From NCBI RefSeq assembly GCF_001659605.2, contig NC_035164.2:19686000-19749999 (forward strand): a stretch of 64,000 nucleotides of DNA. Reading direction: 5' to 3'. Position 1 is the stretch's first letter. Each line of letters begins with the position of its first letter. The notes under the pieces are model-generated. The model saw only the letters and a list, made by a program, of their open reading frames with translations, ran no database searches and was not told the origin of the DNA. Origin of the DNA: Manihot esculenta. Taxonomy: Eukaryota > Streptophyta > Magnoliopsida > Malpighiales > Euphorbiaceae. Positions 34,768 to 64,000 of the stretch are shown one piece after another. Position numbers and translations under genes: made by a program.

Positions 34768-34827
34768 GGTGAGTGTTATGTGTTTTGTATGTATGTTTAT
34801 GTTTGTGCTATGCATGTGCTAGTTGAG

Positions 34828-40132: not shown

Positions 40133-40137
40133 TTGAA

Positions 40138-40220: not shown

Positions 40221-40223
40221 GAT

Positions 40224-40235
40224 TGGTATCAGAGC
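40224..40235 (+). other. Primer binding site of X internal 2
   Basis: TGGTATCAGAGC, three bases after LTR2. Confidence 0.9.
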
Positions 40236-40479
40236 CTGGTTCATATGGTCGGACCTAGAGTGTCGGGCTCATAGATGTTCTAGGAGGTCAAGCACAATAG
40301 GAAAATCATGTCCACTAGGATAGGATGAAGAGTCATGTCTTGAATGATGATGTGAAATGCCATGATTATATGCATGTTCATTAATGATATGTTATGTATG
40401 TGATGCGGGTTCATGTGTCTGCACATGAACCATTTGATGCTGATGTTTATGTGTTGTGTGTTGTTTTTCAGTAAACAGG

Positions 40480-44500: not shown

Positions 44501-45472
44501 GACTGACCAAATCTGCTCACTTCATCCCTGTCAGGAGTGGCTATTCTGTGGACAAGTTGGCGTAGGTGTATGTAGATGAGATCGTCAGGCTGCATGGGGT
44601 TCCTGTTTCAATAGTGTCTGATCGAGGGCCCCAATTCACTTCCAGGTTTTGGTGGAGTCTGCAGAACGCTATGGGTACCAGGTTGGATTTTAGCACTGCT
44701 TTCTATCCATAGACGGACGGACAGTCAGAGAGGACCATCCAAACAATAGAGGATATGCTCAGAATGTGTGTGCTGGATTTTGGCAGTTCTTGGAGGTAGC
44801 ATCTACCCTTGGTGGAGTTTGTCTATAATAACAGTCATCATGCTAGCATAGGGATGGCTCCATATGAAGCTTTATATGGAAGGAAGTGCAGATCGCCTGT
44901 TTGTTAGGAAGAAGTTGGAGAAAAGGCCTTGGCAGGGCCTGAGCTAGTAGAGATCACCAGCATAGTGGTGCCCATAATCAGAGAAAGGATCAAGACTGCT
45001 ACAAGCAGGCAGAAGAGTTATGCAGACATCCGCAGAAGGCTAGTAGAGTTTCAGGAGGGGGATTTGGTATTGCTCAAGGTGTCTCCAATGAAAGGGGTGA
45101 TTCGGTTTGGGAAGAAAGGTAAGCTAGCTCCACGGTATATCAGACCCTTTGAAGTCTTGCAAAAGATTGGGAATGTATCGTACAAGCTGGACTTGCCTGC
45201 TTCAATGGAAAGAATCCATCCGGTTTTCCATGTTTCCATGTTAAGAAAGTTTATTGTCAGATCCGAGTAAGGTTCTTAGTGAGCCTAATGTGGAGATCCA
45301 AGGAGATCTCACCTATGTTGAGCAGCCGGTGCGGATCATAGACACCCAGATCAGAAAGTTGAGAAACAAGGAAATCCCGATGGTGAAAGTCCTTTGGAAT
45401 CACCACAACATTGAAGAGTGTACCTGGGAGACACGGGAGTCCATGCTCCAGCAATATCCTCATCTCTTTTAA
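41590..45472 (+). pseudogene. pol: Pol of X internal 2 (zinc knuckles to chromodomain-like end)
   Basis: The frame 41590-43989 is open and covers the two zinc motifs, protease, RT (FIDDILVYS intact) and most of RNase H (YCDAS). The protease motif reads DPSASHSF, a Gly-to-Ser change at the active site. Downstream, TAG stops lie at 43990, 44071, 44563, 44710, 44797 (all Gln in A) and 44905 (Trp in A), and the last integrase zinc-site segment has Tyr for a Cys (SAYKVCQ). A 1-bp insertion near 45252 shifts the end, which closes with QQYPHLF at TAA 45470. Clearly dead, with a very uniform type of mutation. Confidence 0.9.
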
Positions 45473-45534
45473 AGTAAGTATTATGTGTTTTATGTGTATG
45501 TTCATGTTTTATGCCATGCTATGTTTGTTTGGTG

Positions 45535-45570
45535 AACATTCGGGGACGAATGTTCTTAAGGGGGGAAGAA
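45535..45570 (+). promoter_or_regulatory. Hairpin AACATTCG-GGGA-CGAATGTT and polypurine tract
   Basis: Perfect 8-bp stem with a 4-base loop (45535-45554), then TTAAGGGGGGAAGAA next to LTR3. This is the least damaged copy of the hairpin. Confidence 0.85.
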
Positions 45571-47860
45571 TGTAATACCCGGCTAGACTCCGGTATCAGA
45601 ATTCCTACCGTCCGGTGGAATCTCGGATGTCGGAAACCTCTAGAAGGGTAAAAGCATGTTTTTATAAAATGTTTTAATGTATCTTATGGTTTTAAGCAAA
45701 AAGGAAATTGAGTTTTAAATGAAAAAGACTAAGGAGACATTTCGAGGTTCGACCGTCGAACGTGGGATGGTTTAGGGGGGCAAGTTAGGCTTTCGAAAGT
45801 TTCAAAGATTCAGCCGACGAACCTCATGTTCGGCCGCCGAACTTGCATGAATATTGGAGGCACTGTAGGCTGCCGAAAGGTGGTCTGCCAGCCCCTATAT
45901 AAGAGCTCCATGGCCGAAACGGGCGAGTTTTCTCCCCATTTTCGGCCACGGTGAGTTCTTGATCTCCCATGGTTCGTTTTTGATGTTTTTCCTCCAATAT
46001 TTCACGTTTTAACAAGCTTTATGTTGATTTGAAGATATTTGAACAAAAGAGCGAGTTTTGGAAGCTTGGAGACCAAAGAGTCAAGATCTCTCCCATCTCC
46101 AAGTTGGATCGTCTCTCCTCTCGTTCTTCAAGAGGTAAGAGTAGATCCATGGTTCCTTTAATGTTTTAAGTAAGTTTTATGAAGTTTCTTGGGGTAGAAA
46201 TGCATGTGTAGGTTTATGTGGAGTTTATGGGTTTATTGTACGTTTATGGACAATGTATGTTGGATATGCATGTTTGATTGTTGTAGTTAGGGTTTAGGAT
46301 GGTTTGAAGCCCCTAGGAGCATGTATGCTTGAGTATGCATGTTGTAGAATAGGAAAATGCATGATGGAATGAGTTGGGAGGCGTTTATGCATGTTGAGCT
46401 GAGTTTCTGCCCTTTTGGGAAGAACTCAGGTTTGGCAGCCGAAGGCTCTTTTGGCCGCCGAACCTGCCTTTGGTAGCATGTATCGGCTACCGAACCCTGC
46501 CCCTGAAAGAGGACTTTCAGCTCTGGAAGGGAGTTTTGGCCGTCGAAGGTGCCGCCGAACATGCATGAGTTTCGTCTCTGGAGGGAACCTTCGGCCGCCG
46601 AAAGTGCCGCCGAAGGTGCATGACTTTCGGCTCTGAAGGGCCTTTCGGCCGCCGAACCTGCCGCCGAAAGTGCCCTATTCAGCCCTCCTTTGCATGATTT
46701 ATGTGATTTTTTTAAGGTGTTTTAGGGGGTTTTTGGGGGAGTATTTTAGAGTTATGTTTATGTATGTTAGGTCCCTCATTTGAGTCCACCTGTGTAGGTT
46801 CGGACCCGAGGAATCGAGGACCCCAACAGTGAGTTCAGCTGCTTCTGAGTCTGTTAGAGCTTCAGCCAGAGGTGAGTGGAATATCTTATTTCAATTCAAA
46901 GTAAATAAATAAATTCTGAGCATGATACACGCATCACAATTGCCATGAGATATAGTAGGGTGTTTGCATTAGAATTCACGAATATGTTGCATTGCATAAT
47001 ATGTTGTTGATGTGGGTGAATGTTGGATGATCCTTTAGCCGCACTACGTTATGATATGATGTGATACGGTATGGAAGACCAGTGAGGCCCATTCTACGCC
47101 CCTGGCACTATGTAAGAGAAAGACTAGTGAGGCCCATTCTACGCCCCTGGCATATTGGAATGTTATGTTATGAATATAATGTAAGAGAAAGACCAGTGAG
47201 GCCCAGTCTACGCCCCTGGCACTATTGGAATGAGTAGTGGGCTATTGGTGACAAGTTCACCCTTGATGTGGATTGTTTGTGATATGTTGCATTCCATGAA
47301 AGCATGAAATTTAAATTGAATGTTTAATTATTCTGCTCACTGGGCTTTATAGCTCACCCCTCTCCCTTAACTCCCAGGTTTGCAGGTACAGGGTAGGCCA
47401 GGAGGTCAGCAGGAGTAGAGTTATGTTATTGTAATAGCTAGATGTGGACATGGATATGATGTAATGTAAAAGTATGATATAGAAATGTTATATAATGATG
47501 CTTATGAAAGTTTAGAGTTGTGCTTGACCATAATATTATGTTAATCCCTTTCTAGTACATGATCTTAATATTTATTGATGATTATTGTAAACCCAAACTT
47601 AATTTATGTTATGTCACCCCATTGGAGCATTGATGAGGACTCCAAGGTGGGGTTAATGTTTATGTTTATGAATAGTACATGCACAGGTTGAGTTTGGTGA
47701 TTGAATGGAAAGAAAAGTTCAAAATTTTTATGTATGTTGTTGATCATGTATGGGATTAAACAGGTTCACAGGTTGAATGTTTGGCTTGCTACGGGTCCTG
47801 GCAGTCTTAAGCCGACCTAGATCCTGGCGCCGGTAGCGGTCCGATTTTCGGGTCGCTACA
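45571..47860 (+). repeat. LTR3 of X, recombinant LTR at an inversion breakpoint
   Basis: The head differs from LTR1 and LTR2 but matches X2 (60956-63235, opposite strand) closely up to about 47450; beyond that the tail is type B like LTR2, whereas X2's tail is type A like LTR1. It is followed by gypsy G (minus strand), not by copia C as the left flank of X predicts. Repeats ACCAGTGAGGCCCATTCTACG occur three times at about 47078-47222. Confidence 0.88.
45896..45903 (+). promoter_or_regulatory. TATA box of LTR3
   Basis: TATATAAG, 325 bp into the LTR after CAGCCCC. X2 has the same box on the minus strand at 62887-62894. Confidence 0.6.
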
Positions 47861-49106
47861 ACAAACTTCGACCCTAGTAAGTAATGTCTCCACATTCTTA
47901 GACAATGAATCACTGCTAACAACTCCTTCTCTTGAGCTGTGTATCGAACTTCCGCCTCCTTCAACTTTCGGCTCTCAAATGCTACCGGATGTCCTTCTTG
48001 CATGAGTACTCCCCCTAGTGCCATGTTGGAAGCATCTGTCTGCACCTCAAAAGGTTTGCTCATATCGGGAAGAGCTAATACTGGTTCGGCCATCATCGCG
48101 TTTTTCACCTCATCAAAAGCTGCTTGGCACTCGTTCGTCCACTGCCACTTGTTTCCCTTCTTTAGGAGCTCTGTGAGGGGGCACACTTTTTGGGAATATG
48201 CCTTCACAAATCGCCTGTAATAGTTTGCCAACCCCAAGAAGGATCTCAACTCTGTTACACCCCGGGGTACTTCCAATCTCGAATGGCTTTTACCTTACCC
48301 TGATCCATGCTTATTTTCCCCTGCTCGACCACATGACCCAAGAATTTAATTCTAGTTTGAGCAAACACACATTTCTCTTTCTTCATGAAGAGCTTATTCT
48401 CCCTTAATTTCTCGAATACCAAACTAAGATGTTCCCTGTGTTCTTTCAGCGAAGAGCTATATACCACAATATCATCAAGATAGACCACCACAAATTTATC
48501 AAGATATTCGTGAAAAACCTGGTTCATCAAAGTGCAAAAAGTAGCATGAGCATTTGTTAGTCCAAAAGGCATGACTAGAAACTCAAAAGCACCATACCGT
48601 GTTACACATGTTGTTTTGGGCTCGTCCCCCTCTTTAATTCGAACCTGATGATACCCTGATCGAAGATCAAACTTGGTAAAGAACTTTGCCTGACCCAACT
48701 GGTCGAACAAATCTGCTATCAAGGGGATAGGATACTTATTACGCACTGTCACCTTATTCAGAGCCCGATAATCCACACACAACCTTAGACTTCCGTCTTG
48801 TTTCTTTTGAAAAAGCACAGGAGCCCCAAAGGGCACTTTTGCTGGTCGTATAAACCCAGCTTCTAGTAACTCATCCAACTGTTTTCTCAATTCTGCCAGT
48901 TCTGGGGGTGCCATCTGGTAAGGCACTTTCGCTGGAGCCCTTGTGCCCGATAACAACTCTATTTCGTGATCAATACTTCGACGAGGTGGCAGAACAGACG
49001 GTAACTTTTCTGGCATAACATCTTTGTATCTCAGCATCACGTCCCTGATCTCAAGGGGGTATGTAGACACCTCCCCCTCTTTCTTCATAATTGGAACCAC
49101 CACAAT
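47861..49106 (-). pseudogene. pol: Gypsy G, RT and first part of RNase H
   Basis: The minus strand encodes an RT starting after [11 protein letters not shown], with the [13 protein letters not shown] and [12 protein letters not shown] segments, [13 protein letters not shown] with the catalytic Asp pair, FLGHVV and [11 protein letters not shown], then RNase H beginning FEVQTDAS and stopping at HYLLGSKF. A frameshift lies near 48265. This is a gypsy lineage different from the Tekay-type copies, resembling the Reina/Galadriel-type chromoviruses; lineage is by eye. The frame resumes at 63236 on the plus strand. Confidence 0.88.
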
Positions 49107-49600
49107 TTAGCATCATCAACCAAGTACAAGGGTAATATCAACAGCTTGTCCTCCTCGAACTCTCGCTTGGTAACTCTAAAGAACAATTCCATGTCAAAAA
49201 GAAAATTGTCTACTTCTTTTGCATCCCTTGCTCCGCCAAAAGCTTTCGGCTCCGGGACCTTTATCCTCTCTGCCCCACAAGTTTTCATGTCATTGCTCCC
49301 CGTAACTTTCATAATCGTGTTCACCCTTGCATCAAGCTCTTCCAGTTTACCTTGGAACGTGTTCATCATCTCTTTGACATTATCATTGATTGTATCGATG
49401 GTCTCTTTAGCACCATCTCTAATCTCTTCGACAACCCCTACCAAAGAGGTATGAGCATCAGAAATAGATTTGAGGCTTTCCATTATGCCTCCCACTTGAG
49501 AGGCCACTGCCTCCCATTCTGTCATTTTGGACTCCAGATCACCCCACCGGGTGTCCTTCGCTTGCAAAGGGTTTTGGTGGCTGATAGCGGTTGTCGAAGC
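49107..49600 (-). pseudogene. gag: Gypsy G, Gag fragment fused to RT by deletion
   Basis: The minus strand encodes a coiled, acidic segment (MESLKSISDAHTSLVGVVEE) and a Gag capsid start with VPEPKAFGGARDAKEVDNFL and DDAKLWW. Directly after DDAKLWW the sequence jumps to the region before RT (VPIMKKEGE), so the rest of Gag, the zinc knuckle and the protease are deleted. The copy cannot be autonomous. Confidence 0.8.
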
Positions 49601-50988
49601 CGTCAAAAATAAACCTATTAAACAATCAACAATTAACTTGTAGATAGTGGCAATAGGGTCGAACCACAGGGATTTGACACTACGGTTTTTCCTAATAATG
49701 ACTTGGACAAGTAAATAACAAGAAATTAAAAGAGAGGGGTTTTGTTTTGAAGATGTACTAAAGCTAATTAACAATAGAAAGCAAATAATTTAAAGATGAG
49801 TAAATCAATAAGAGAAAAGCTTCTAGTTGAAGTATGGATCTATTTTAGATTATTTAGAATTGATCATTGATTCTTTAACACTCCTATTTATTTCAATAAA
49901 TTAGTTTAGGATGTGGAAGACGCTTCTCACAATCCAAATCCTTCCTTAGTTCTAGTTTGATTAGGAAACGTTCACTAATCAAACACTAGTTAACAAGTTG
50001 CCAAGGAACGTCCTTGGGGCTTTTAGCATCGAACAACTGTTAACTGCATTAAGACTTAGAGAAACCTAATTCTAACCTTGCCAACCGCGTGGTCAAGTTT
50101 AGATTATGCAACTTGATTAAATGTGTGTTCAAATAATCTAAGCAATTACGGACCTAAATTATTCAAACAATTGTTACTCAAGCAATTAAAAGCAATAGGC
50201 CTAAATTGATTCTAAAAGCAAAGCAACAATTATAGAAAGATCAAATTGCATAAATATTGAAAATAAATAGAAGTTTAACAATGGAGATTTAAATCTCCCA
50301 ATTCATCACAAATCTGAATTTTCCAACTTCAACTAGAAAAGAAAAGTGTTTAGCCACTCATGGTGGACAAAAATACACAAAAGAATGAAGAAAGGAAGAG
50401 GAGAGGAGTCTGCTGGATTTCTGCAGGTTCGCCGAGAATGGCAGATGAAGAAGAGATGCCCCTTGCTGGTTTGGAGGCTGCCCTTTTATAACTGAAGAAT
50501 TCCATCCTTCTAGGGTTTTGAAATCCCTTTTTAATTTGGCTTGTGATTCCTCTTTTAATGTTGAATTTAATTGCAACTGGAATTCCTTAGGTGAGAAACT
50601 CGTTCGTGGCTCTTGGAATTGTGTTGGTAGTGATTGAGTTGGATTTGGACTTCTGAAAATTCGAAATTCGGTTTCTTGCTGTTTTCCTACCTCTGCTGTC
50701 AATTTCTGCTGTCAAGGTGATTTGGGTAGATCATTTGCTCGATCTGCCCCAATCGCTCTCTGGGATTCAGTCCAGTTTCTGTCTCTGTATCTGCGAGTGA
50801 TTTGGCCAGTTTCTGCGAGTGATTTGGCCAAATCACTCTGACCCAATCACTTTTCCAGCTTTTTCTTCACTTTTTCTCCAACTTTCCAATTTCTTCCTTT
50901 TCTGTAAAAACATAACAAAAACACAAATTAAGCTAGAAAAATGTGTAAATAAACAGTAATAAATATAATAAAAATGTGGCTAAATTAT
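49601..50988. mobile_element. 1,388-bp insertion of unknown class in gypsy G gag
   Basis: Gag codons before and after this stretch join as ...TCGAAGCTTGATC..., with at most a 2-bp duplication (GC). The insert starts CGTCAAAAATAAACC and ends GGCTAAATTAT. It has no terminal inverted repeats and no coding frame, is AT-rich, and contains a tandem TGCGAGTGATTTGGCC-type duplication near 50785-50835. I do not recognise its class. Confidence 0.6.
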
Positions 50989-51212
50989 GCTTGATCAGTG
51001 GCCTCAAGCTCTATTGGCCCACCCTCACCTCTAGGCGATTTAGCCCTCTTAGCCAATCGCCGTTCATTTTCTTTCTCTAGCGCCTCAATGCGCTTATAAG
51101 CATAATCAAATTCCAATACCATCCCCTCTTGGGTGGCATAGTCACTCAATAGAGCAACAATGTTCTCAACCCTTCTCTCAATGGCATCGATGCGTGTGGT
51201 AGATTTTTTCAT
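50989..51212 (-). pseudogene. gag: Gypsy G, Gag N-terminus
   Basis: ATG at 51212 (minus), MKKSTTRIDAIERRVENIV..., a helical, charged start typical of chromovirus Gag, with EKENERRLAKRAK. Cut after about 72 codons by the insertion at 49601-50988. The primer binding site lies 28 bp upstream, which supports this start. Confidence 0.75.
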
Positions 51213-51239
51213 ACCTCCACACTATTCTCGATCGTTTTG

Positions 51240-51251
51240 GCTCTGATACCA
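51240..51251 (-). other. Primer binding site of gypsy G
   Basis: Minus-strand TGGTATCAGAGC, two bases from the LTR end. Confidence 0.88.
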
Positions 51252-51253
51252 AT

Positions 51254-51742
51254 TGTCACGGTTTCAGATTTTGACACTGGCCTGGAACCGTGTGGCACTT
51301 GGTTTGAACTCTTTTCAAGCCAAGTCAGCCAAGCTCTCTACGCGTTCACCTGGACAAAGGAACGTAAAGGTTAGGACCTCCTGCCCCATTCTCGTAAAAA
51401 CGGGAAATACCACAGTTATCATATGAAAATATCATGATCAGATAATTATAGCAACACAAGCACATCAACAAGCAACCAAGCCCTGAGATTTATTGAATGG
51501 GCTACTTATTTTATTCCAGGGGCAAAATAGTCATTACGCAATCATATCAACGATCCATTCCCAGCTTGCAGACAGGGGGGAACGCCTGCAAGAAGAGAAG
51601 GCACAAACCAGGGACTCAACAAGCCTACGGTGGCTAGTCGGGCCCAGCCCTTGCTGGTGGCCAACTAGTCACTCCCCCCTAAAGAGTCTTAAGAACAAGT
51701 AGAAGTATGGTGGGAGGAGACATCAATATGTCTGAGATGACA
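51254..51742 (-). repeat. 5' LTR of gypsy G
   Basis: A 489-bp LTR on the minus strand, TGTCATCTCAGAC to CCGTGACA, with 5-bp terminal inverted repeats TGTCA/TGACA. Its outer edge abuts AAGGGGGGG (minus strand, 51743-51751). The 3' LTR lies beyond the window. Confidence 0.75.
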
Positions 51743-53120
51743 CCCCCCCTTAATAAATAAATAAAAAGGAATTACAAGAAACTGACACGGCTCTTTTCTT
51801 ACTACTAATTTCTACTAATTTATCCCATCATTATTTCCTGAAAATTCTAATATTGAAAAATTACAGTTTTGGTCCCTGAAACTCTATGACCCTGACAAGT
51901 AGCTTGTAGCATGAGTAGCTTGTAGCGGTACTTGAATGCTCTAAGGCATGACCTTGAACATCCTAACACAACAATGAGAGGAAAGCATCGCAGTATAAAT
52001 TAACTAGCCTTAGTTAAATGCACTGTTAGGGATAAAGCAAGGGCCTTTCTAACCAAAGGAGAAGGACAACATACCCTCTTAGCCAAACCATCCATAACTC
52101 GGCTTAAAGCATACCTTATAAGATTTGCCGCAACACAAAAAGGGGCATATGCTAGGACTAGGCAACATCACAATTCACCTTATACCATCCCATCGACGAA
52201 AGGAGCTAACTATGATCATGCTGAAGAGTTCTTGCAGCTTGAGAAGGTAAACAAAGTAGAATAGAAGGATTATACCCAACCAATGTCCACACATGAATGC
52301 TTAATATGCAGAATAGTAGTAGACGGATAAAGCTTCTGCAAATCAAATACTCCTTCGTTGCATTCTTTCTAAATATGCAACCAAGAATAGCCAACTGTAT
52401 TAAGAGTCTTTGATGGAAATGAATTATGATTACATTGCTCGACAAGAACAGACACCACATATTAAAGGACAGAAAAGCTAACCTATGATGATTTATATGT
52501 ACAGGAGCTAGAGAACCAAGAGACTCGAGCTTGTGCACACCAAAAAAAAGGTGTGTTCCATTGTTTCCTAATCATCATGACAAATGGGATAAGAAGCCTT
52601 AGTCTTAATAACTTTACCTATGAGATTACTTTTAACTACTAATATTGCACGCCAAAGAAAAACCTTAACCTTTAGCTGAATATGTAGTCTTCAGAGTTGT
52701 TTCCATGTTGACAGTACAATGACATAAGAGGTGGATGGCCGAGAAATCAAATTGTTCCAAAATGGTTTAAACAATAAGAAGTAGCATGACTTGATAGTAT
52801 ATTTGCTTAAAAACTCATAATTCCAAACAAGATCATGGTTACAGCCCTTAAGTGCCACATGAATCAATAAAATCAATGAAGCCTGATCATAAGGGAATAA
52901 GGAAGTAACCAAACCATATTGCCACTCCAAAGTGCCATGGTCGCTCAAATCTATCACAAGATTGATACTTGAAGAACAATAAAAAGATTTATCAAAGTGG
53001 AAATTATCAATGTGGAAACTATCCAGAAACAGAAGCCATAAATCTTCCTAAATAAGAGTGTCATGCCCATCGCTACCTCTAGCTTTAGCAGATTCCTTGT
53101 TAATAGTATACCCTACAGCC
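51743..53120 (-). pseudogene. LINE 3' region: RT zinc-binding and RNase H domains
   Basis: On the minus strand, LVWNYEFLSKYTIKSCYFLL (about 52800-52860) and KVKVFLWRA followed by PICHDD (about 52575-52672) match the zinc-binding domain that follows plant LINE reverse transcriptases. KECNE...LQKLYPSTTILHIKHS lies further on, and WYKVNCDVA (about 52165-52190) is the start of a plant LINE RNase H. Many stops and frameshifts. The RT itself is absent. It probably ends near the T/A-rich 51760. No target duplication identified. Confidence 0.7.
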
Positions 53121-53340
53121 AATCTGTTGGTTATAGTTGAATATTATTATTGATGTATTTTAAGTATCTAAATATAATTTTATAAAGTCAATTATTTATC
53201 TTTAGTGTTAATTTAATTGAACTTTGAGTAAAGATAAAATCTATGAGACTATATTACTGTGCGAAGGAAATTATAATATGGTTATAATTGTGAGATTCTT
53301 ATTGCATTTAAGTAATATCCCCAAATATTCCGATATTCTT
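53121..53340. other. AT-rich non-coding stretch between LINE and copia C
   Basis: No coding frame recognised. It occupies the place where C's leader and early gag should be. No match to C's presumed LTR (13684-13892) was seen, so C seems truncated at its 5' end. Confidence 0.4.
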
Positions 53341-53523
53341 ATCATGATTGGACATTTTTAGAAAGGTTTTCACAGGGAGACATTTTCAGAATTTCAGATC
53401 TGCAGGAAGAAATATATGCCTTCAAACAAGGTGATTGTATTGTCACTGAATATTTAACAGAACTCAAGATACTATATGATGAGTTAATGAATTTCAGACC
53501 TATACCTGTTTGCACATGTACTG
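53341..53523 (+). pseudogene. Copia element C, Gag fragment
   Basis: Plus strand; encodes LERFSQGDIFRISDLQEEIY and LTELKILYDELMNFRP, the central helices of the copia UBN2-type Gag domain. Cut by a solo LTR within the cysteine-rich CTCTDPCAC segment, at TACTG. Confidence 0.82.
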
Positions 53524-55800
53524 TGTAACGACCCGAAAATCGGACCGCTACCGGCGCTAGGATCCAGATCGGCTTAAGGCCGCCGGGACCCGTAGCAAGC
53601 CTGACATGTAACCTGTAAACCTGTTCAATCCCATACATGATCAACAATCATACGTAAAAATTAAAAACTTTTCTGGCATTCATTCCTCATACGCCAAACT
53701 CAACCTGTGCATGCACTAAACATAGCCATAATCATAAACTTGACCCCTCTGTGGGATCTCATCAATGCCCCAATGGGCGATACATCATAAGTTGAGTTGG
53801 TTAAACATAAACATCAATAGACATTAAGATCATGTATCAACAAGGGATTACAATGAACTATGGTCCAGCACACTTCTAAACCTCAATATCATTATACATA
53901 ACATAACTATCTAACTTTACATCATTATACAATTTACCATGTCCACTATCTATCTATTACAAACATAAGACTTTACTCTTCTTGACTTCTCTGTCTAGCC
54001 CGTACCTGCAATCCTGGGGGATTAGGGAAAAGGGGTGAGCTACTAGAGCCCAGTGAGCAGAATAATAGAAAACAATATTTAAAATCTCATGCCATCATGT
54101 AATGCAACACATCACAACTAATCACATCTCGGATGGTATTGTCACCAATAGTCCTCTACATTCCAAAGTGCCGAGACGTAGAATGGGTACAACCGGTCTT
54201 TCTCTTAACATAACATATCATACATACCAATGTGCCAGGGACGTAGAATGGGTACAACCTAGACTTTCTCTTACATAGCGCCAGGGATGTAGAATGGGTA
54301 CAACCTGGACTTCCATACCATATCATGCCGTAGCATCATCATACCATATGAGGACTAAAGGATCATTCAATAACCAATCCACATCAACATCATAAATGCA
54401 ATGCAACATATTCGTGAATTCTAATGCAAACAACCTAATTCATCACATGGCATTCATGATGCATGAACATGCTTAACTGTGTAATTCATTTGCTTTAAAA
54501 ACATAAAGGTTTATTCTACTCACCTCTAGCTAGCTCTGACAAAGACTGATGCAGCTAACTCACTGCTGGGGTCCTCGGTTCCTCGGGTCCGAACCTACAC
54601 AGGTGGACTCAAATGAGGGACCAAACAACTAGAACATAACTCTAAAAACATCCCCCAAAAACTCCCTAAAACACCTCAAAACAATCATGCAAAAACATAC
54701 AAAGGAAGGCAGAACAGGGCAGGTTCGGCGGCACCTTCGGCGGCCGAAAGTCCCTCCAGAGCCGAAACCCAGGCAGGTTCGGCGGCACCTTCGGCGGCCG
54801 AAAGTCCCAGACAGAGACGAAAGTCTCTTTCCGGGGGCAACTTCGGCAGCCGAAAGGCCTGCCTCCCCAACCATGTTCGGCGGCCGAAAGTTCCTTCGGC
54901 TGCCGAACCTGGTTTCTGCCAAAGGGCAGAAACTTGGCTCCTCTATGCACATTTGCCTCCAAAACTTCCAATCATGCATTTAGCTCAACCAAAACATGCA
55001 AATATACATACATTGGCTCCTAGGGGCTTCAAACTAACTTAAACCCCAACTACAACACACAACAACAACACAATCCAACATACATTGCTCAACACATAAC
55101 ATTAACTCAAAAACCTAACTATGAGCTAAACATGCATTCTACCCCATAGATCTTGCATAAAACTTACTTTAAACATGAAATGAGCTTAAGATCGGCTCTT
55201 ACCTCTTAAAGATCGAGAGAGAGACGTCCTAAACTCAGAGGTGGGAGATTTTTGAGTTCTTGAACCTCAAAGCTCCAAAACTTGCTTTAAACTCGAAAAT
55301 CTTCAAAACAAAGCAAAAACTTGTGAAAATCTTGAAAGATTTGAAGGAAAAACTCAAGGATTGGTGAGGAACGGCGAAGAGCTCACCTTGGCCGACAATG
55401 GGGAGAAAAACTCGCCCGTTTTCGGCTAAGGGACCCTTTTATAGTGGCTGGCCAGGCCACGTTCGGGGGCCGAACGTGCCTCCGCATGCATGCCATGTTC
55501 GGCGGCCGAACTTGAGGTTCGGCGGCCGAACCTGGACTTTCCTCAACCTATGCCTTCGGGGGCCTAAGGCACACCCGAAATGCCTGCATGTTCGGCGGCC
55601 GAACTTGAGGTTCGGCGGCCGAACCTGGGTTTTCCTCCAAGGTTGTTTTTATTCAAAAACTCATTTCCTCTTTACTTAAAACCATCAAAAACAATTAAAA
55701 CATTTTATGAAAACATGTTTCTACCCTACTAGAGGCTTCCGACATCCGAGATTCCACCGGACGGTAGGAATTCCGATACCGAGTCTAGCCGGGTATTACA
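53524..55800 (-). mobile_element. Solo LTR (family 2), minus orientation
   Basis: A 2.28-kb LTR, TGTAACGACCC to GGGTATTACA, with TACTG on both sides (53519-53523, 55801-55805). TATAAAAG (minus) at 55436-55443. Three GACGTAGAATGGGTACAACC-type repeats at about 54175-54315 and palindrome clusters at 54720-54910 and 55460-55625. Close to W in its repeat type. Confidence 0.93.
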
Positions 55801-57204
55801 TACTGATCCTTGTGCTTGTGGTGTTGTGGCAAAATTTACTACATATCAGAAGAATGACTATGCAATTCGCCTCCTTAAAGGACTGAATGATAGATTCACT
55901 CATGTTAGATCTCAAATTATGCTTATAGATCATTTGCCTTCCATAAATAAGGTTTTCTCACTACTTGTACAACAAGAGAGACAATTGGATCTTAGTGAAA
56001 ATGTGAAGGTATTTGTTAGTGTAAAGGCATCAAATCTTGAAATACTCTCAAAGAGCAATTAGTTTTAATCAGTCACAGAATAGAAATGCCTTCTACAAAA
56101 ATTCTTCTAGCAATGCAAAGGTGTGCACCTACTGTGGAAAGCATAGGCATACTGTAGATACATGCTATAGAAACACAAATTCCCTCATGGTTTTAAGTTT
56201 AGAAACTCATCTATCAATCAGATTGTAATGCATGATGCTACTAAAAAAGATGAGAGTGTACAATCGTATCGAATGCCGGCAACTGTAAATTCTGGTGGAT
56301 CATGTACTCCTTTTACTCAAGAGCAAATCCAGCAGTTATTAGCTTTAATTCAACCTTCAAATTTAGCAGTTTCACACACCATTAACCAAGTCAGTACTAG
56401 TAATGCTTCTGTCTCAATTCCCACAGGTAATTCAGTGTCATTGTCATGTTTTTCCAAGTCTCATTTTTTGCTCTTAGATACAGGGGCAACAGATCATATT
56501 TGTTTTTCTCTGTCTCCTTTCTCTTCTTACAAAAGAATACACCCTATTCATGTCAAGTTACTAAATGGTGAGCAGCTAATGTCACATTTTTCAGGCACAA
56601 TTAACCTCAATGATGATCTCTGCCTCACAAATGTCCTTTATATTCCTTCATTTTCTTTCAATCTAATCTCAGTCACTAAACTTACTATTGCTCTTAATTG
56701 CTGCTTGGTATTTGGCAACAATTATTATTTCATTCAGGCAATGAAACCCTGGAGGATGATTGGTACAACTAAGGTAGAGGAAGGCCTATATGTGCTGCAT
56801 CAAAAGAGCATTAACCAGGTTTCTCAAGCTGCCAACAGCATTGGTTCTCATCCCTTCTGTGTTTGGCATTACAAATTTGGTCATCCATCTACTTCTAGAC
56901 TCAAAGTTTTGCATTCCAAATGTCCATCTGTACTTGTGGATCATATATCAGATTCCTATGATATATGTCATTTAGCTAAACAAAAGAGAATACCTTTTTC
57001 CTGTTAGCTAATCCCAAACCATTAGACCCTTTGACATTGTACATGTGGACATTTGGGGTCCGGTTTCTACAGTTTCAATAAATAGAGATAAGTATTTCCT
57101 TACTTTGGTGGATGACTACAATAGATATACATGGATATATTTGATGCAAAATAAGTTCGAAGCAAGAAAATTATTGTAGAATTTCATTCAAATGGTGGAG
57201 GTTC
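55801..57204 (+). pseudogene. Copia element C: Gag end, zinc knuckle, protease, integrase start
   Basis: Continues Gag with AIRLLKGLNDRFTHVRSQIM, then a CCHC knuckle (CTYCGKHRHTVDTC, about 56120), protease with LLDTGATDHI (about 56472), the linker LYIPSFSFNLISVTKL, and the integrase zinc region WHYKFGHPS...DICHLAK, where the first Cys of the CxxC is Tyr. After TAG at 57005 the frame goes on through VHVDIWGP and LVDDYNRYTW, the first catalytic Asp and surroundings. Frameshifts near 56050 and 56220. Cut at GGTTC by the next solo LTR. Confidence 0.88.
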
Positions 57205-59489
57205 TATAATACCCGGCTAGAGTCCGGCATCGGAATTCTACTTTTCGGTGGAGTCCGGGATGTCGGAAGTCTCTAGAAGGGTTAGATTTATGTTTTTCTA
57301 TAATGTTTTGCTATGTTTATCAAGTTTTATGCATAAGGAAATGAGTTTTTGAGTGAAATGAACCAAGGCAGAAAAGCCAGGTTCGGCCGCCGAAGTTGAG
57401 GTTCGGCCGCCGAACATGCATGGCTTTCGGTTTCACGTGTGGCCGCCGAAGGTGGTCTGGCCAGCCACCTATAAATGGCCCTCAGTCGGTTGAAGCGGTG
57501 AGAACACCGTTTCTTTTGTCTTCTGAGGTGAGACCCTGTCCTTTGTGAGTCTTTCTTCATGTTTTCATTCAATCATGCAAAGATTTGATTAGTTTTCATG
57601 ATGATTTGAAGGTTTTAAGCTACACACTCCAAGTTTTGAAGTTTGGAGAGTTTGAAGGCAAGTTGCTCCAAAACTCCACGTTAGGATCGTTCATCTTCTT
57701 GATTTCAAGAGGTAAGTGAAGATCCTGAGCTTGTTTTTATGTTTTCTGAAGGTTTTATGGGGTTTATGGAGAGAGTTGCATGAATAGGGTTATTTGTGAG
57801 CTTTTGATGATTTTGTGCATAAAGCTTGTTTCTGTGTTGTTTTTGTTGTGTTTTTGGGGTTTTACGGTAGTTTCTGACCCCTTTGAGCATATACATGAGT
57901 GTATGCAAGTTGAGGAAGTGTGGTGTGAAGTTGGAGGGGAGTTTGGTGCATTTGGCGAGAGGCAGGGCAAGTTTCTGCCCTGCTGATGAACTCAGGTTCG
58001 GCCGCCGAAGGTACATTCGGCCGCCGAACCCCTGAGGAGATGAGAGGAGGTGGCTTCGGCTGCCCAAGCTTGCCCCCGAGCTTTTGGACTTTCGGCTCTG
58101 GAGGGAAGTTCGGCCGCCGAAGGTTAGAGACTTTCGTCTCTGGAGTGCCTTTTGGCCCCCGAAACTTGCCCCCGAAAGGGTTCGGCAGCCGAAAGTGGAA
58201 GTTCGGCAGCCGAAGGTGCTTGAGTTTCGTCTCTGGAGAGGACTTTTGGCCGCCGAACCTGCCGCCGAAAGTGTCCTGTCCAGCTTTCTTTTGCATGCTT
58301 TGCATGGATGTTAGAGTGAGTTTAAGGGGATTCTTGGGGGAGTTTAATAGAGTTGTTCATAAGTTAGTTTGGTCCCTCATTTGAGTTTATCTGTATCTAT
58401 ACAGACTAGAGGAACCAGAGAGAGCAGCAGTGAGTACTGCTCCAGAGTGTACAGAGCCTGCAGAGTCAGTCAGTCCTGATAGCCAGAGGTGAGTGGAACT
58501 AAACTTAATTCTTTAAATTGCACAATGGAATGTTTTAGCATATCTCATGCATCATCATTATACAATAGGTTGAATGCATTACTATCCACGAATATGTTGC
58601 ATTGCATAGTTATTGTTGATGTGGGTGAATGCTGAATGATCCAATAGTCTCAGACAGGAAGTCCAGGAGCCTTTGACTACGCCCTGGCAAGTATAGTAAA
58701 GACCAGGAGCCTTTGACTACGCCCTGGCAGGTATAGTAAAGACCAGGAGCCTTTGACTACGCCCTGGCAATGGTAAGTACAGAGGTGTTATATACACATA
58801 TACATATATGACAGGAAGACCAGGTGCTCGATTCTACGCCCTGGCACAGAGTTACTGGGACTATGTGGTGACAGGTTTACTCTTGATGTGGTTTGTCTGT
58901 GTTATGACGCATTCCATGAGATCATCTTTTAATGACTTGTTTTACTGTTCTACTCACTGGGCTATAGAGCTCATCCCACTCCCTTAACCCCAGTCTTGCA
59001 GGTTCGATGTACAGTGTACAGGAAAGGTTCAGCAAAGTGCAGAAAAAAGAAAAGAGAATTGTAATAGTGTAGAGTGGACATGTAATGTTAAAGAGATGTA
59101 ATAGTTATGTTTTCAGTTACAGATGTGCTTGACTTAGTAGTTTGTGTTGTAAATCGATTGTTATGTACATGATCTGTATATGTATATGTTTTACTGAGTA
59201 TGTGAAAAACCAGACTTAATAGGTATGAGTTAACCCATCTAGAGCAAGCTCTAGTCAGGGAAACAGAGTACAGAGTACAGAGTACAGAGTACAGAGTACA
59301 GAGTACAGAGATAGTGCATGCATAGGTTAAGCCTTGGTTCAGAAAAGAGTTTTTATTTTCACAGAAATGTATGATCACGTATGAGATTTACAGGTACACA
59401 GAGAGTATAGCAGGCTTGCTACGGGTTCTGGCGGCCTTAAGCCGACCTGAATCCTAGCGCCGGTGACGGTCCATTTTGGGGTCGTTACA
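57205..59489 (+). mobile_element. Solo LTR (family 1)
   Basis: A 2.29-kb LTR of the element A family with GGTTC on both sides (57200-57204, 59490-59494). The first bases are TATAATACCC, a G-to-A change from TGTAATACCC. It has a clear TATA box (TATAAATG, 57470-57477) where element A has none, three CCAGGAGCCTTTGACTACG repeats (about 58660-58765) and an extended ACAGAGT array. Confidence 0.93.
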
Positions 59490-60955
59490 GGTTCAGTTTG
59501 AAACAAGTTTGAAAAAGATAAGAAGTGATAATGGTCCTGAATTTAACATGCCTGAATTCTATCATAGTAAACGAATTATACATCAAACAACATGTGTAGA
59601 AACCCCTCAATAGAATGCAAAGTGGAAAGAAAGCACCAACACATCCTTAATGTGGCAAGAGCTCTTTTGTTTCAATCTCATCTCCCTAAATCCTTTTGGT
59701 CCTATTCTGTTCTTCATTCAGCTTTCCTTATCAATAGAATTCTAACTCCCATTTTACAAGATAATTCACCTTTTGAGACTTTATTTTTGAAACCTCCAGA
59801 TTACTTGCAACTGAAAGTCTTTGGCTCTTTGTGCTATGCATCTACTATTGTATCAGGGAGGACCAAATTTGATCCAAGAGCCAATAAATGAGTGTTTCTT
59901 GGTTATAAGGATGGCATTAAATGTTTTGTTGTGATGAATTTGAAGACCAGATAGATATTCTTGTCCATAAATGTTACTTTTCAAGAACATGTATTTCCAT
60001 ACTCAGACCTATGCAGAAATGAGGTTATTATCCACCATGAGCATTCTGATCTTGACTATTCTGATTCTCTTCAATTGCCTAGTTTTGTTGATATTCCTGA
60101 GTCTCCTTCTGCCACTGAGTCTTCTTCTACTATTAAGTCTCAGTTAGTTCCTGAGCTTCATAATGAATCTTCAATTCCTCTCACAAGAGTCTCTCAAAGG
60201 ATAAAGAAATCACCTACTTATTTACAAGACTATCATTACAATTTAACATCTTCAAACTTCAATACGTCTCAATCTCCTAGTGTCCTTTATCCTTTATCTT
60301 CTGTCATTTCATATGATTCTTTGTCATCATCACACTTGCACTTTACTCTAAGCATTTCTAGTACCACTGAACCTGAAAATTATACAGAAGCTATTAAATC
60401 TGAAGAGTGGAGAAAAGCTATGGCTGCTGAGATTTCTGCCTTGCAGCAAAATAAAACATGGTTGTTGGTAGATTTGCCTATGGATAAGAGTCCCATTGGC
60501 TATAAATGGGTGTACAAAATTAAACAAAAGGCAGATGGTAGCATTAAAAGGTACAAGGCTAGATTGGTAGCTAAAGACTACACACAAACTGAGGGCATAG
60601 ACTATTTTGACACTTTTAGTCCAATAGCTAAAATGACCACAGTAAGGATCTTATTGGCTTTGGCTTCTATTCATCAATGGCATTTATAGCAGTTAGATGT
60701 CAACAATGCCTTTTTACATGGAAATTTAAATGAAGAGGTTTACATGATTCTTCCACATGGTTTTAAAGCTGATAGTCCAAATAAGGTTTGCAAGTTACAA
60801 AAATCTTTATATGGACTTAAACAAGCTAGCAGGCAGTAGTTTTTCAAATTGTCTCAAGCCCTTACTACCTGTGGTTATTGTCAATCTAAAGTTGATTACT
60901 CTTTGTTTGTTAAATGGAATTCAGAATCATTTACAGCTATTCTGGTCTATGTTGA
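59490..60955 (+). pseudogene. Copia element C: integrase end and RT
   Basis: The integrase continues with KIRSDNGPEF and the TTCVETPQ-NA segment (catalytic Asp and Glu region; a stop replaces one Gln), NRILTPIL, and FGSLCYAST. A serine-rich linker follows, then copia RT from EWRKAMAAEISALQQNKTW through [39 protein letters not shown] and [11 protein letters not shown], to the bases before the catalytic YVDD. Stops at about 59611, 59889, 59952, 60687 and 60837. It breaks off at GTTGA (60951-60955); the rest of RT is at 14832-13893 on the other strand. Confidence 0.9.
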
Positions 60956-63235
60956 TGTAACGACCCGAAAACCGGACCGCTACCGGCACTAGGATCCAAA
61001 TCGACTTAAGGTCGCCGGGACCCGTAGCAAACCTAACATACATCCTGTACACCTGTTAAATCCCATACATGATCAATCATTTACATAAAATTTTAAACTT
61101 TTTCTTTCATTCACCAAGCTTAACCTGTGCATGCACAACTCATAATTATAAACATCAAACCCCACACTGGAGCCCTCATCAAATGCTCCAATGGGGTAAC
61201 CTAACATACATTAAACTTGGTTTACATAAACATAAATAAAACATTTCATTAATAAGATCATGTACCAAAAAGGGATTAACCAACATACTAGGGTCAAGCA
61301 CAACTCTAAACCTCAACAACCATCATTACATTATATTAAGTCCACATCTAGCTATTACAATAACATAACTCTACTCCTGTTGACCTCCTGGCCTACCCTG
61401 TACCTGCAAACCTGGGGGTTAAGGGAGAGGGGTGAGCTATAAAGCCCAGTGAGCAGAATAATTAAACATTCAATTTAAATTTCATGCTTTCATGGAATGC
61501 AACATATCACAAACAATCCACATCATGGGTGAACTTATCACCAATAGCCCACTACTCATTCCAATAGTGCTAGGGGCGTAGACTGGGCCTCACTGGTCTT
61601 TCTCTTACATTATATTCATAACATAACATTCCAATATGCCAGGGGCGTAGAATGGGCCTCACTGGTCTTTCTCTTACATAGTGCCAGGGGCGTACAATGG
61701 GCCTCACTGGTCTTCCATACCGTATCACATCATATCATAACGTAGTGCGGCTAAAGGATCATCCAACATTCACCCACATCAATAACATATTATGCTATGC
61801 AACATATTTGTGAATTCTAATGCAAACACCCTACTATATCTCATGGCAATTGTGATGCGTGTATCATGCTCAGAATTTATTTATTTACTTTGAATTGAAA
61901 TAAGATATTCCACTCACCTCTGGCTGAAGCTCTAACAGACTCAGAAGCAGCTGAACTCACTGCTAGGGTCCTCGGTTCCTCGGGTCCGAACCTACACAGG
62001 TGGACTCAAATGAGGGACCTAACATACATAAACATAACTCTAAAATACTCCCCTAAAAACTCCCTAAAACACCTTAAAACAATCACATAAATCATGCAAA
62101 GTAGGGCTGAACAGGGCACTTTCGGCGGTAGGTTCGGCGGCCGAAAGGCCCTCCAGAGTCGAAAGTCATGCACCTTCGGCGGCACTTTCAGCGGCCGAAG
62201 GTTCCCTCCAGAGACGAAACTCATGCATGTTCGGCGGCACCTTCGGCGGCCGAAACTCCCTTCCAGAGCTGAAAATCCTCTTTCGGGGGCAGGGTTCGGC
62301 AGCCGATACATGCTACCAAAGGCAGGTTCGGCGGCCGAAAGAGCCTTCGGCTGCCGAACCTGAGTTCTTCTCAAAAGGGCAGAAACTCAGCTCAACATGC
62401 ATAAACGCCTCCCAACTCATTCCATCATGCATTTTCCTATTCTACAACATGCATACTCAAGCATACAAGCTCCTAGGGGCTTCAAACCATCCTAAAGCCC
62501 AACTACAACACATCAAACATGCATATCCAACATACATTGTCCATGAACGCACAATAAACCCATAAACTCCACATAAACCTACACATGCATTTCTACCCCA
62601 AGAAACTTCATAAAACTTACTTAAAACATTAAAGGAACCATAGATCTACTCTTACCTCTTGAAGAACGAGAGGAGAGACGATCCAACTTGGAGATGGGAG
62701 AGATCTTGACTCTTTGGTCTCCAAGCTTCCAAAACTCGCTCTTTTGTTCAAATATCTTCAAATCAACATAAAGCTTGTTAAAACGTGAAAGATTGGAGGA
62801 AAAACATCAAAAATGAACCATGGGAGATCAAGAACTCATCGTGGCCGAAAATGGGGAGAAAACTCGCCCATTTCGGCCATGGAGCTCTTATATAGGGGCT
62901 GGCAGACCACCTTTCGGCAGCCTAAAGTGCCTCCAATACTCATGCAAGTTCGGCGGCCGAACATGAGGTTCGGCGGCCTAACCTTTGAAACTTTCGGAAG
63001 CCTAACTTGCCCCCCTAAACCATCCCACGTTCGGTCGCCAAACTTGGGGTTCGGCGGTCGAACCTAGAAATGTCTCCTCTTTTTCATTTCAAACTCAATT
63101 TCCTTTTTGCTTAAAACCATAAGATACATTAAAACATTTTATAAAAACATGCTTTTACCCTTCTAGAGGTTTTCGACATCCGAGATTCCACCGAACGGTA
63201 GGAATTCCGATACCGGAGTCTAGCCGGGTATTACA
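60956..63235 (-). repeat. LTR X2, recombinant LTR at the second inversion breakpoint
   Basis: A 2.28-kb LTR in minus orientation, TGTAACGACCC to GGGTATTACA. Flanks differ (GTTGA left, TTTAT right), so it is not an ordinary solo LTR. Its head and middle match LTR3, while its last 400 bp (60956-61350) match the tail of LTR1 (26130-26532). TATATAAG (minus) at 62887-62894, three GGGGCGTAGAATGGGCCTCA-type repeats at about 61570-61710, palindrome clusters at 62115-62360 and 62940-63065. Confidence 0.88.
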
Positions 63236-64000
63236 TTTATAGTTAAGACAGACAACACGGGTGTCAGACATTTCTTTTCTCAGCCGAGATTAATACTTAA
63301 GCAAGTAAGGTGGCACGAATGTTTATCTGAGTTTGATTTCCAATTTGTATACAACCCGGGAAGTTCTAATAGGGTGGCCGATGCTTTAAGCAGAAAACTT
63401 GAGATAGCAACCCTGAAGCAGATAGCTCAATTGTCCCAGAGCGTAGCAAAGTCAACGTTGAAAGAAAGGATTCGAGAAGAGTTACAAAAGGATCCCCAAG
63501 CCATGGTCTTGAGGAAACTAGTGGACAATGGCAAAACTAGGCAATTTTGGTTAGAAGCGAATTTGATCATGACAAGAGGGAACAGAATCTATGTTCCCAA
63601 AGCAAGGGGACTTAGAAGTTTGTTATTAAAGGAATGTCATGACACTAGGTGGGCTGGCCATTCAGGGTGGCAGCATACTTTAGCACTTCTGAAGCAAGGG
63701 TACTTTTGGCCAAAAATGGCAAATGACGTCCAAGAGTATACAAAGACTTGTTTGGTTTGTCAACAGGATAAGACGGACAGACAAAAACCAGCTGGGTTGT
63801 TACAGCCATTACCAGTGCCGAGTAGGCCATGGGAAAGTGTTTCCATTGACTTTATCGCTGGACTCCCACGGGTAGGGGAATTTGATCACATCCTGGTGAT
63901 TGTCAACAGGTTTTCCAAATATGCCACGTTCGTGCCGGTGTCAAAATATTGTTCGGCAGAGGAGACTGCTAAAGTATTTTTCAAGCATGTTGTAAAATAC
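63236..64000 (+). CDS. pol: Gypsy G: RNase H end and integrase, open to the window edge
   Basis: An uninterrupted frame from the first base after LTR X2 to the end of the window (255 codons, no stop). It begins FIVKTDNTGVRHFF, completing the RNase H that stops at HYLLGSKF at 47861 on the other strand, and has [12 protein letters not shown] at its end. The integrase zinc site follows (ECHDTRWAGHSG...CLVCQQDK), then the first catalytic Asp in SIDFIAGLP and the start of the core. The rest lies beyond the window. It is a fragment of an element, without its own start codon here. Confidence 0.88.

What the first reader, a model, noticed from the sequence alone, without database searches (positions are those of the whole stretch)
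47861..60955. A 13-kb inversion between two inverted LTRs, proved by two split retrotransposons
Copia C breaks inside its RT at 14832 (minus strand) and at 60955 (plus strand); the two ends share TCAAC/GTTGA and the reading frame joins through the catalytic YVDD site. Gypsy G breaks inside RNase H at 47861 (minus) and 63236 (plus); the ends share ACAAA/TTTAT (one mismatch) and the frame joins. Both breaks sit at the outer edges of LTR3 (45571-47860) and LTR X2 (60956-63235), which lie in opposite orientations. Flipping 47861-60955 repairs both elements and both target duplications at once. The likely event is recombination between LTR3 and a solo LTR in G. The alternative is an assembly mis-join inside the same repeats.
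Basis: partly seen in the sequence, partly recalled or inferred. Interest (0 to 1): 0.88.

Follow-up and report, generated by a model that had tools for sequence, protein, structure and literature searches.

The report
Inversion scar between two nested retrotransposons
Two related jumping genes lying in opposite directions in a plant chromosome most likely exchanged ends inside their terminal repeats and flipped about 25,000 bases between them, leaving a scar that looks like a tandem element plus a lone repeat; a known kind of event, recorded here at almost single-base detail.

Summary
The splits, flanking duplications and LTR coordinates in the finding are right, and an inversion is well supported. 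The partner LTR is probably another one, which changes the extent and the parents. Four LTR copies (LTR1 at 14833, LTR4 at 34865, LTR3 at 45571, X2 at 60956-63235) carry 338 two-against-two sites. One switch fits 335: LTR1=LTR4 / LTR3=X2 before it, LTR1=X2 / LTR3=LTR4 after it (0 of 20,000 shuffles). LTR4 and X2 are thus reciprocal hybrids, and one inversion of 36694-61339 (24.6 kb), not 47861-60955, returns two complete elements in opposite orientation: E_A in Copia C and E_B in Gypsy G. That single event explains both split elements, the swapped TSDs, the three-LTR/two-internal array and the apparent solo LTR. The joins are out of register (LTR4 21-22 bp long, X2 31-32 bp short) with about 1 bp shared, more like end joining of two breaks than a clean homologous crossover. 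Mis-assembly is unlikely but was not tested with reads. Known kind (Galileo in Drosophila, Cereba in einkorn); a new, finely resolved member.

The parts
13923..14832 (-). Copia C, 3' part: second part of RT from the YVDD site (14491-14832) and open frames beyond it
   Evidence: RVT_2 profile 165-242 for 14491-14841; no Pfam hit for 13923-14147; frame begins DDLILAGND
14828..14832 (.). TSD of E_A, left copy (TCAAC)
14833..16633 (+). LTR1, first part: 5' LTR of E_A (type A)
16634..26053 (.). later nested insertion in LTR1: LTR2, itself split by a young element (17832-24907); TSD GGGAT both sides
26059..26532 (+). LTR1, last part (type a' from 26150 on)
   Evidence: 26154-26532 is 96.3% identical to X2 60956-61334
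26533..34864 (+). internal region of E_A (INTa), interrupted by a palindromic insert (26656-27229) and an LTR insert (31005-33385, TSD AGTGA)
   Evidence: primer site TGGTATCAGAGC, polypurine tract
34865..36693 (+). LTR4, type A part = E_A's 3' LTR up to the break
   Evidence: 34865-36663 is 96.4% identical to LTR1; phase sites
36693..36694 (.). inversion junction 1 (A|B); 1 bp (T) shared; LTR4 is 22 bp (v A) or 21 bp (v B) long here
36694..37019 (+). LTR4, type b' part = E_B's 5' LTR beyond the break (continues 40138-40220 after a later insertion)
   Evidence: 97.1% identical to LTR3
37020..40132 (-). later insertion in LTR4 (palindromic units plus a reverse LTR), TSD TTGAA
40221..45570 (+). 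internal region of E_B (INTb): gag, protease, RT, RNase H, integrase C-terminal SH3-like domain, chromodomain
45571..47860 (+). LTR3 = 3' LTR of E_B (types B, b'), no switch of its own
47861..49106 (-). Gypsy G, 5' part, tested stretch (RT; RNase H to profile position 73; G may reach on to about 49789); TSD ACAAA at 47861-47865
   Evidence: 49088-49789 gave only weak coiled-coil hits
55801..60955 (+). Copia C, 5' part (Pol_BBD, pre-integrase, SH3-like, RT to YV|D); interrupted by a solo-like LTR at about 57205-59489; TSD copy at 60951-60955
   Evidence: 55736-56059 gave no Pfam hit
60956..61338 (-). X2, type a' part = tip of E_A's 3' LTR (383 bp)
   Evidence: 96.3% identical to LTR1
61338..61340 (.). 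inversion junction 2 (B|T|A); one T of unclear origin; X2 is 31 bp (v A) or 32 bp (v B) short here
61340..63235 (-). X2, type B part = most of E_B's 5' LTR
   Evidence: 61347-63235 is 97.2% identical to LTR3
63236..64000 (+). Gypsy G, 3' part (RNase H from profile position 73, integrase zinc binding); TSD copy TTTAT at 63236-63240
36694..61339 (.). the inverted segment (24,646 bp)

Best explanation
Two complete Ty3/gypsy elements of one family but different subfamilies sat in opposite orientation: E_A inside Copia C and E_B inside Gypsy G. The 3' LTR of E_A and the 5' LTR of E_B were each broken within the same AT-rich stretch, about 380-410 bp from the LTR's 3' end. The broken ends were joined crosswise, inverting everything between them (now 36694-61339). 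The products are (1) a hybrid LTR4 that fuses E_A to E_B into an LTR-INT-LTR-INT-LTR array and (2) a hybrid lone LTR, X2, each flanked by one target duplication of C and one of G. Shown by sequence: the mosaic LTRs, the single shared switch, the swapped TSDs, the complementary element halves. Inferred: that one event made all of this (parsimony), and that repair was by end joining of two breaks (about 0.6, given the inversion) rather than by an in-register homologous crossover (about 0.4). The confidence below is for the LTR4 x X2 inversion, whichever way it was joined.
For: Phase test: 335 of 338 informative sites fit one switch; 0 of 20,000 shuffles do as well. Trees of the two LTR parts, seven copies each, group LTR1+LTR4 and LTR3+X2 (both 100) before the switch, and LTR4+LTR3 (100) and LTR1+X2 (89) after it. 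Divergence within each parental pair is the same on both sides of the switch: E_A 64/1799 v 14/379, Fisher P=0.88; E_B 53/1868 v 11/374, P=0.87; the two types differ by K2P 0.20-0.23. TSDs 5/5 and 4/5 after the flip, 3/5 and 2/5 without it. RT and RNase H halves are complementary. For end joining: LTR4 keeps type A to the base matching LTR1 26140 and type B from 47451; X2 keeps B to 47449, one T, then A from 26150; so 9 bp of A and 1 bp of B are unrepresented and 1 bp is shared at one join. The five non-recombinant copies aligned have one copy of the local unit; LTR4 has both units and X2 neither.
Against: The ancestral letters at the break are known only through LTR1 and LTR3, now 3-4% diverged from their partners, so the small losses are approximate. 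Two uniform breaks within these LTRs would fall within 32 bp of matching positions in 2.9% of trials, so homology or a shared fragile tract probably had a part. One TSD pair has a mismatch. No LTR pair for Copia C was found between 9960-13925 and 49000-57300, so the unity of C rests on frame, profile and TSD. No reads, relatives or second genome were available.
Confidence: 0.87

Rival explanations
1. Same two elements and same inverted segment, but made by an in-register homologous crossover; the length changes at the joins are heteroduplex-repair or later slippage events in an AT-rich tract. (A sub-case of the best explanation: the confidence is its share, given that inversion.)
For: The breaks lie only about 23-32 bp from matching positions in LTRs that are homologous throughout; two uniform breaks would do so in 2.9% of trials. 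The tract is 27-32% GC against 43% for the LTR.
Against: Both products carry an indel at the switch itself, while only 2 gaps of 15 bp or more occur in 4,420 other aligned within-pair columns. The parental types are 80-82% identical, with no exact run over 20 bp within about 170 bp. LTR4's extra bases match type A, which an in-register product would not keep.
Confidence: 0.38
2. One reading: E_B in G became a solo LTR (B-b') and its excised one-LTR circle entered E_A's 3' LTR, giving a three-LTR array in C; then LTR3 recombined with that solo LTR within the type-B part and flipped about 13 kb.
For: It repairs the same C and G halves and TSDs and ends in the same four mosaics. LTR3 and X2 are 97.2% identical over the type-B part with an exact run of 153 bp, better substrates for homologous exchange than types A and B.
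Against: Needs three events where one suffices, and the circle would have to enter an LTR only 80-82% identical to its own.
Confidence: 0.05
3. Assembly mis-join inside the LTRs.
For: Cannot be excluded without reads; the junctions lie in repeats. A swap between LTR3 and X2 in their type-B part (97.2% identical, exact run 153 bp) is conceivable with short reads.
Against: At the LTR4/X2 switch the types are 80-82% identical with at most 20 identical bases in a row within about 170 bp, and the joins share about 1 bp and are out of register, unlike an overlap mis-join. A swap in the type-B part would leave the LTR4/X2 mosaics still to be explained by other events.
Confidence: 0.06
4. No inversion: unequal recombination made the three-LTR array, ordinary deletion made a solo LTR X2, and the C and G halves are separate elements.
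For: Such arrays and solo LTRs are common; einkorn has 61 Cereba and 620 Angela tandem elements (PMC10447253, passages).
Against: The array's outer flanks match 3/5 and X2's flanks 2/5. C and G breaks complement each other across the two loci. The mosaics are reciprocal.
Confidence: 0.01

Closest known systems
Galileo-mediated inversion 2z3 of Drosophila buzzatii (PMC2775673; passages seen)
   Same: Two copies of one transposon in opposite orientation, exchanged target duplications, both copies chimeric with one switch point, shown by split phylogenies.
   Different: There a DNA transposon in a polymorphic inversion, with non-inverted chromosomes for comparison; here LTR retrotransposons, 24.6 kb, one haplotype, joins out of register.
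RLG_Cereba inversion in the einkorn chromosome 2A centromere (PMC10447253; passages seen)
   Same: Plant LTR retrotransposons in opposite orientation recombined and inverted the DNA between them; 5-bp TSDs served as tags.
   Different: About 700 kb with borders partly deleted later, and modelled as purely homology-based; here both joins are intact and read at base level.
Retrotransposon recombination-mediated inversions between human and chimpanzee (PMC2603318; abstract and sections 7 and 14 seen)
   Same: Inversion by inverted retrotransposon pairs (49 loci); 12 of the 49 with deletions; breaks within elements also considered.
   Different: L1 and Alu rather than LTR elements; found by comparing two species.
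Three-LTR, two-internal tandem LTR elements from unequal LTR recombination (PMC10447253 passage; REANNOTATE, PMC2672092 passages)
   Same: Same outward anatomy, LTR-INT-LTR-INT-LTR.
   Different: Here the outer flanks do not form a TSD and the reciprocal product (X2) sits 13 kb away in reverse, so the array is best read as an inversion scar.

Membership tests
Inversion by exchange between inverted transposon copies (Galileo type) | two homologous copies in opposite orientation at the ends of the inverted segment | tested here: met
   LTR4 forward, X2 reverse
Inversion by exchange between inverted transposon copies (Galileo type) | target duplications exchanged between the two copies | tested here: met
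   5/5 and 4/5 after the flip
Inversion by exchange between inverted transposon copies (Galileo type) | both copies chimeric, reciprocal, one switch point | tested here: met
   335 of 338 sites; trees
Inversion by exchange between inverted transposon copies (Galileo type) | uninverted chromosome found for comparison | not testable with these tools
   no relative or second haplotype was at hand; the genome search 'own' did not complete
Homologous (in-register) ectopic crossover | switch inside an aligned identical tract, no gain or loss | tested here: not met
   LTR4 21-22 bp long, X2 31-32 bp short, about 1 bp shared
End joining of two breaks | small losses or fillers and little or no shared sequence at both joins | tested here: met
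   9 bp and 1 bp unrepresented, 1 bp shared, 1 bp extra; ancestral letters inferred from LTR1 and LTR3
End joining of two breaks | breaks unrelated to homologous position | tested here: inconclusive
   offset about 23-32 bp; P=0.029 under uniform breaks within the LTRs
Solo LTR (X2) | one LTR of one origin flanked by its own TSD | tested here: not met
   flanks match 2/5; LTR is a mosaic
Tandem array from one locus (14833-47860) | outer flanks form a TSD | tested here: not met
   TCAAC v ACAAA, 3/5
Chromodomain Ty3/gypsy (chromovirus) for E_B | gag, protease, RT, RNase H, integrase, then chromodomain before the 3' LTR | tested here: met
   Retrotrans_gag, RVP_2, RVT_1, RT_RNaseH, SH3_Tf2-1, Chromo E=4.9e-7 in that order; the integrase core frame (44074-44565) was not scanned
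Tekay (Del) lineage | placement in a reference RT tree | not tested
   lineage suspected from LTR length and ends (recalled); no tree made

The most novel reading that the evidence does not exclude
LTR pairing positions two breaks, but repair is by end joining, so diverged (about 80% identical) inverted LTRs can still invert DNA. A share of the three-LTR tandem elements and 'solo LTRs' counted in plant genomes as unequal-recombination products are then really the two halves of such inversions, recognisable by swapped TSDs and reciprocal LTR mosaics.
Probability: 0.25. Interest if true: 0.6.

Novelty: new member of a known kind. Interest (0 to 1): 0.42.

Why it matters
Inversions are hard to see in repeat-rich DNA. 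Here a single sequence, with no second genome, gives the parents, the partners and both joins, because nested insertions with their TSDs act as tags. It also shows that an array plus a lone LTR, which would be read as two ordinary events, can be one inversion. That bears on how solo LTRs and tandem elements are counted, and on dating elements by LTR divergence: pairing copies across the switch (for example LTR3 with X2 in its last 380 bp) would give a false age.

Tried and rejected
Disfavoured: LTR3 x X2 as exchange partners. Their overall identity of 92% or 94.7% (ungapped columns) looked like support, but it falls to about 82% towards the 3' end, where LTR3 matches LTR4 and X2 matches LTR1. 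Rejected by argument, no call: template switching during reverse transcription as source of the mosaics (it would give both LTRs of one element the same mosaic and would not swap TSDs); gene conversion alone (it would not split C and G). Led nowhere: search for the LTRs of Copia C between 9960-13925 and 49000-57300 (no match); the window's own genome. Papers: nine searches (two searches returned nothing); the parts of the listings I saw showed no plant LTR inversion with end-joined breakpoints, but I opened only seven papers, in passages or sections, and most subscription papers are not held. Passages of PMC7251063, PMC2774510 and PMC6696364 were seen and used only as background. An age is not claimed as a result: with the rice LTR rate of 1.3e-8 per site per year (recalled, no call) E_B would be about 1.1 and E_A about 1.4 million years old, and the inversion younger than both.
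Full report
WHAT WAS CLAIMED AND WHETHER IT IS THERE. The sequence facts hold. LTR3 (45571-47860) and X2 (60956-63235) are inverted copies. Copia C ends at 14832 and resumes at 60955 with TCAAC on both sides after the flip (5/5). Gypsy G ends at 47861 and resumes at 63236 with ACAAA/ATAAA (4/5). Random 5-mer pairs of the window match 5/5 with probability 0.00138 and at least 4/5 with 0.018. C-right ends in the frame ...AILVYV and C-left starts DDLILAGND. RVT_2 profile positions 1-77 and 80-128 lie on C-right, 165-242 on C-left. For G, RT_RNaseH positions 6-73 and 73-105 lie on the two sides; the second match is weak on its own, E=0.088. Against: C-right has two in-frame stops in 60591-60955, its last 38 residues gave no Pfam hit, and the outer part of C-left (13923-14147) gave none.

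A self-comparison shows many LTR copies of the same broad kind; I aligned seven full-length ones and left shorter or more distant relatives (for example 691-2485, 8715-9967, 57685-59490) aside. Besides LTR3 and X2, LTR1 starts at 14833 (interrupted 16634-26053, TSD GGGAT) and LTR4 at 34865 (interrupted 37020-40132, TSD TTGAA). So 14833-47860 is an LTR-INT-LTR-INT-LTR array, whose two internal regions are about 89% identical. Windowed identity showed a change of partners near the 3' end: up to about column 2000 LTR1/LTR4 are 92-98% and LTR3/X2 95-98% alike; beyond it LTR3/LTR4 are 92-99% and LTR1/X2 92-97% alike, while LTR3/X2 fall to 82-87%.

THE PHASE TEST. In a four-way alignment (2418 columns) I kept every column without gaps that splits the four copies two against two: 338 columns. 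285 group LTR1 with LTR4 and LTR3 with X2; 51 group LTR1 with X2 and LTR3 with LTR4; 2 group LTR1 with LTR3. A single switch fits 335 of 338: 285 of 288 sites before it and 50 of 50 after it. None of 20,000 shuffles of the site order did as well. Maximum-likelihood trees of the two parts, with three further copies, give LTR1+LTR4 and LTR3+X2 (100 and 100) for the first part, and LTR4+LTR3 (100) and LTR1+X2 (89) for the second.

WHAT THE TEST SAYS. LTR1 is A-a', LTR3 is B-b', LTR4 is A-b' and X2 is B-a'. The hybrids LTR4 and X2 are reciprocal. Undoing one inversion between the switch in LTR4 (36693/36694) and the switch in X2 (61338-61340) returns two ordinary elements in opposite orientation: E_A (LTR1, INTa, an A-a' LTR) inside C with TSD TCAAC, and E_B (a B-b' LTR, INTb, LTR3) inside G with TSD ACAAA/ATAAA. 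The inverted stretch is 36694-61339, 24,646 bp. This one event accounts for the split C, the split G, both exchanged TSDs, the array and the lone LTR.

Not formally. If LTR3 and X2 exchanged within their type-B part, the state before was an array A-a', A-b', B-a' in C and a B-b' solo LTR in G. That could come from a deletion in E_B that left a solo LTR and released a one-LTR circle, and from entry of that circle into E_A's 3' LTR by one exchange. The mosaics and divergences would be the same, and LTR3/X2 are better substrates there (97.2% identical; exact run of 153 bp). But it takes three events where one suffices. An uninverted relative would decide.

A CHECK BY DIVERGENCE. If the pairing is right, each parental LTR pair should show the same age on both sides of the switch although the partner now sits at another place. 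E_A: 64 of 1799 differences (K2P 0.0367) left of the switch against LTR4, 14 of 379 (0.0382) right of it against X2. E_B: 53 of 1868 (0.0290) against X2 and 11 of 374 (0.0302) against LTR4; Fisher P 0.88 and 0.87. Types A and B differ from each other by K2P 0.228 and 0.204. E_A and E_B do not differ significantly in age (78/2178 v 64/2242, P=0.17).

HOW THE ENDS WERE JOINED. The joins are not in register. LTR4 runs in type A to the T matching LTR1 26140, then continues in type B from 47451 (one T is shared), so it holds the local unit of A and the local unit of B one after the other: 78 bp between fixed anchors against 56 in LTR1 and 57 in LTR3. X2 runs in type B to 47449, has one T of no clear origin, and continues in type A from 26150; it has neither unit and measures 25 bp between the same anchors. 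Together 9 bp of A and 1 bp of B are missing. The five non-recombinant copies aligned (LTR1, LTR3, LTR2, Lr1, Lr2) have one unit. Away from the switch, two gaps of 15 bp or more (54 and 20 bp) occur in 4,420 aligned within-pair columns. Small losses, a 1-bp filler and about 1 bp of shared sequence are what end joining of two double-strand breaks leaves (established knowledge, recalled). Against pure chance: two independent breaks, uniform within these LTRs, would fall within 32 bp of matching positions in 2.9% of trials; the stretch is AT-rich (27-32% GC against 43%). So either the LTRs were paired or the stretch is fragile. I put end joining at about 0.6 and in-register homologous exchange with later or coincident indels at about 0.4, given the inversion.

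COULD IT BE AN ASSEMBLY ERROR? No reads were available. At the LTR4/X2 switch the parental types share at most 20 identical bases in a row within about 170 bp, and LTR4 and X2 as a whole at most 54; an overlap-based mis-join there would need far longer identity and would be in register. A mis-join between LTR3 and X2 in their type-B part (exact run 153 bp) is easier, but would leave the LTR4/X2 mosaics to be explained by other events. I give assembly error 0.06.

WHAT THE ELEMENTS ARE. E_B encodes Retrotrans_gag, RVP_2, RVT_1, RT_RNaseH, an SH3-like integrase end and a chromodomain (E=4.9e-7) before its 3' LTR; its integrase core frame was not scanned. Both elements carry the primer site TGGTATCAGAGC after the 5' LTR and a polypurine tract before the 3' LTR. 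This is a plant chromodomain Ty3/gypsy family; I suspect the Tekay/Del lineage (recalled, not tested). Of 7,975 protein hits (only those sharing most words were scored) 120 were listed; the highest identity there was to a Manihot esculenta protein (85% over 97% of the queried part). The host is therefore probably a relative of cassava; the species is not identified.

COMPARISON WITH WHAT IS KNOWN. Inversion by exchange between inverted transposon copies is established. The same diagnostic pair, exchanged TSDs and chimeric copies, was used for Galileo in Drosophila (PMC2775673, passages). Recombination between opposite Cereba elements inverted part of an einkorn centromere (PMC10447253, passages). 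L1 and Alu pairs did so in primates, with breaks within elements also considered (PMC2603318, abstract and sections 7 and 14). Three-LTR arrays are commonly put down to unequal recombination; the einkorn paper counts 61 Cereba and 620 Angela tandem elements. What is particular here is that both joins, all four flanks and both parents' other LTRs survive in one 64-kb stretch, that the joins are out of register between LTR types only about 80% alike, and that array and lone LTR are best read as the two halves of one inversion. The listed titles and abstract openings of my nine paper searches showed no such combination, but these were capped lists and the library lacks most subscription papers.

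VERDICT. New member of a known kind, interest 0.42.

Noticed in passing
26656-27229: A 574-bp palindrome (95.5% between arms) starts TGTAACAGCC and ends GGCTGTTACA and is flanked by CCTGT on both sides: an insertion with LTR-type ends and a 5-bp duplication but inverted, not direct, arms.
   Followed up: partly
37020-40132: One insertion (TSD TTGAA) made of three alternating copies of a 277-bp unit (over 99% alike; parts about 84-86% like the 26656 palindrome) followed by a reverse LTR (37874-40132); an odd composite element.
   Followed up: partly
17832-24907: The lowest LTR divergence measured here: K2P 0.0034, TSD GTTTT; nested in LTR2, which is nested in LTR1.
   Followed up: partly
53524-55800 and 57205-59489: Two solo-like LTRs nested in the 5' part of Copia C, with TSDs TACTG and GGTTC.
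   Followed up: partly
50817-50838: A perfect 22-bp palindrome between the G and C parts.
   Followed up: no
11755-12264: A 169-codon open frame on the minus strand beyond the Copia C 3' part, no Pfam match.
   Followed up: partly
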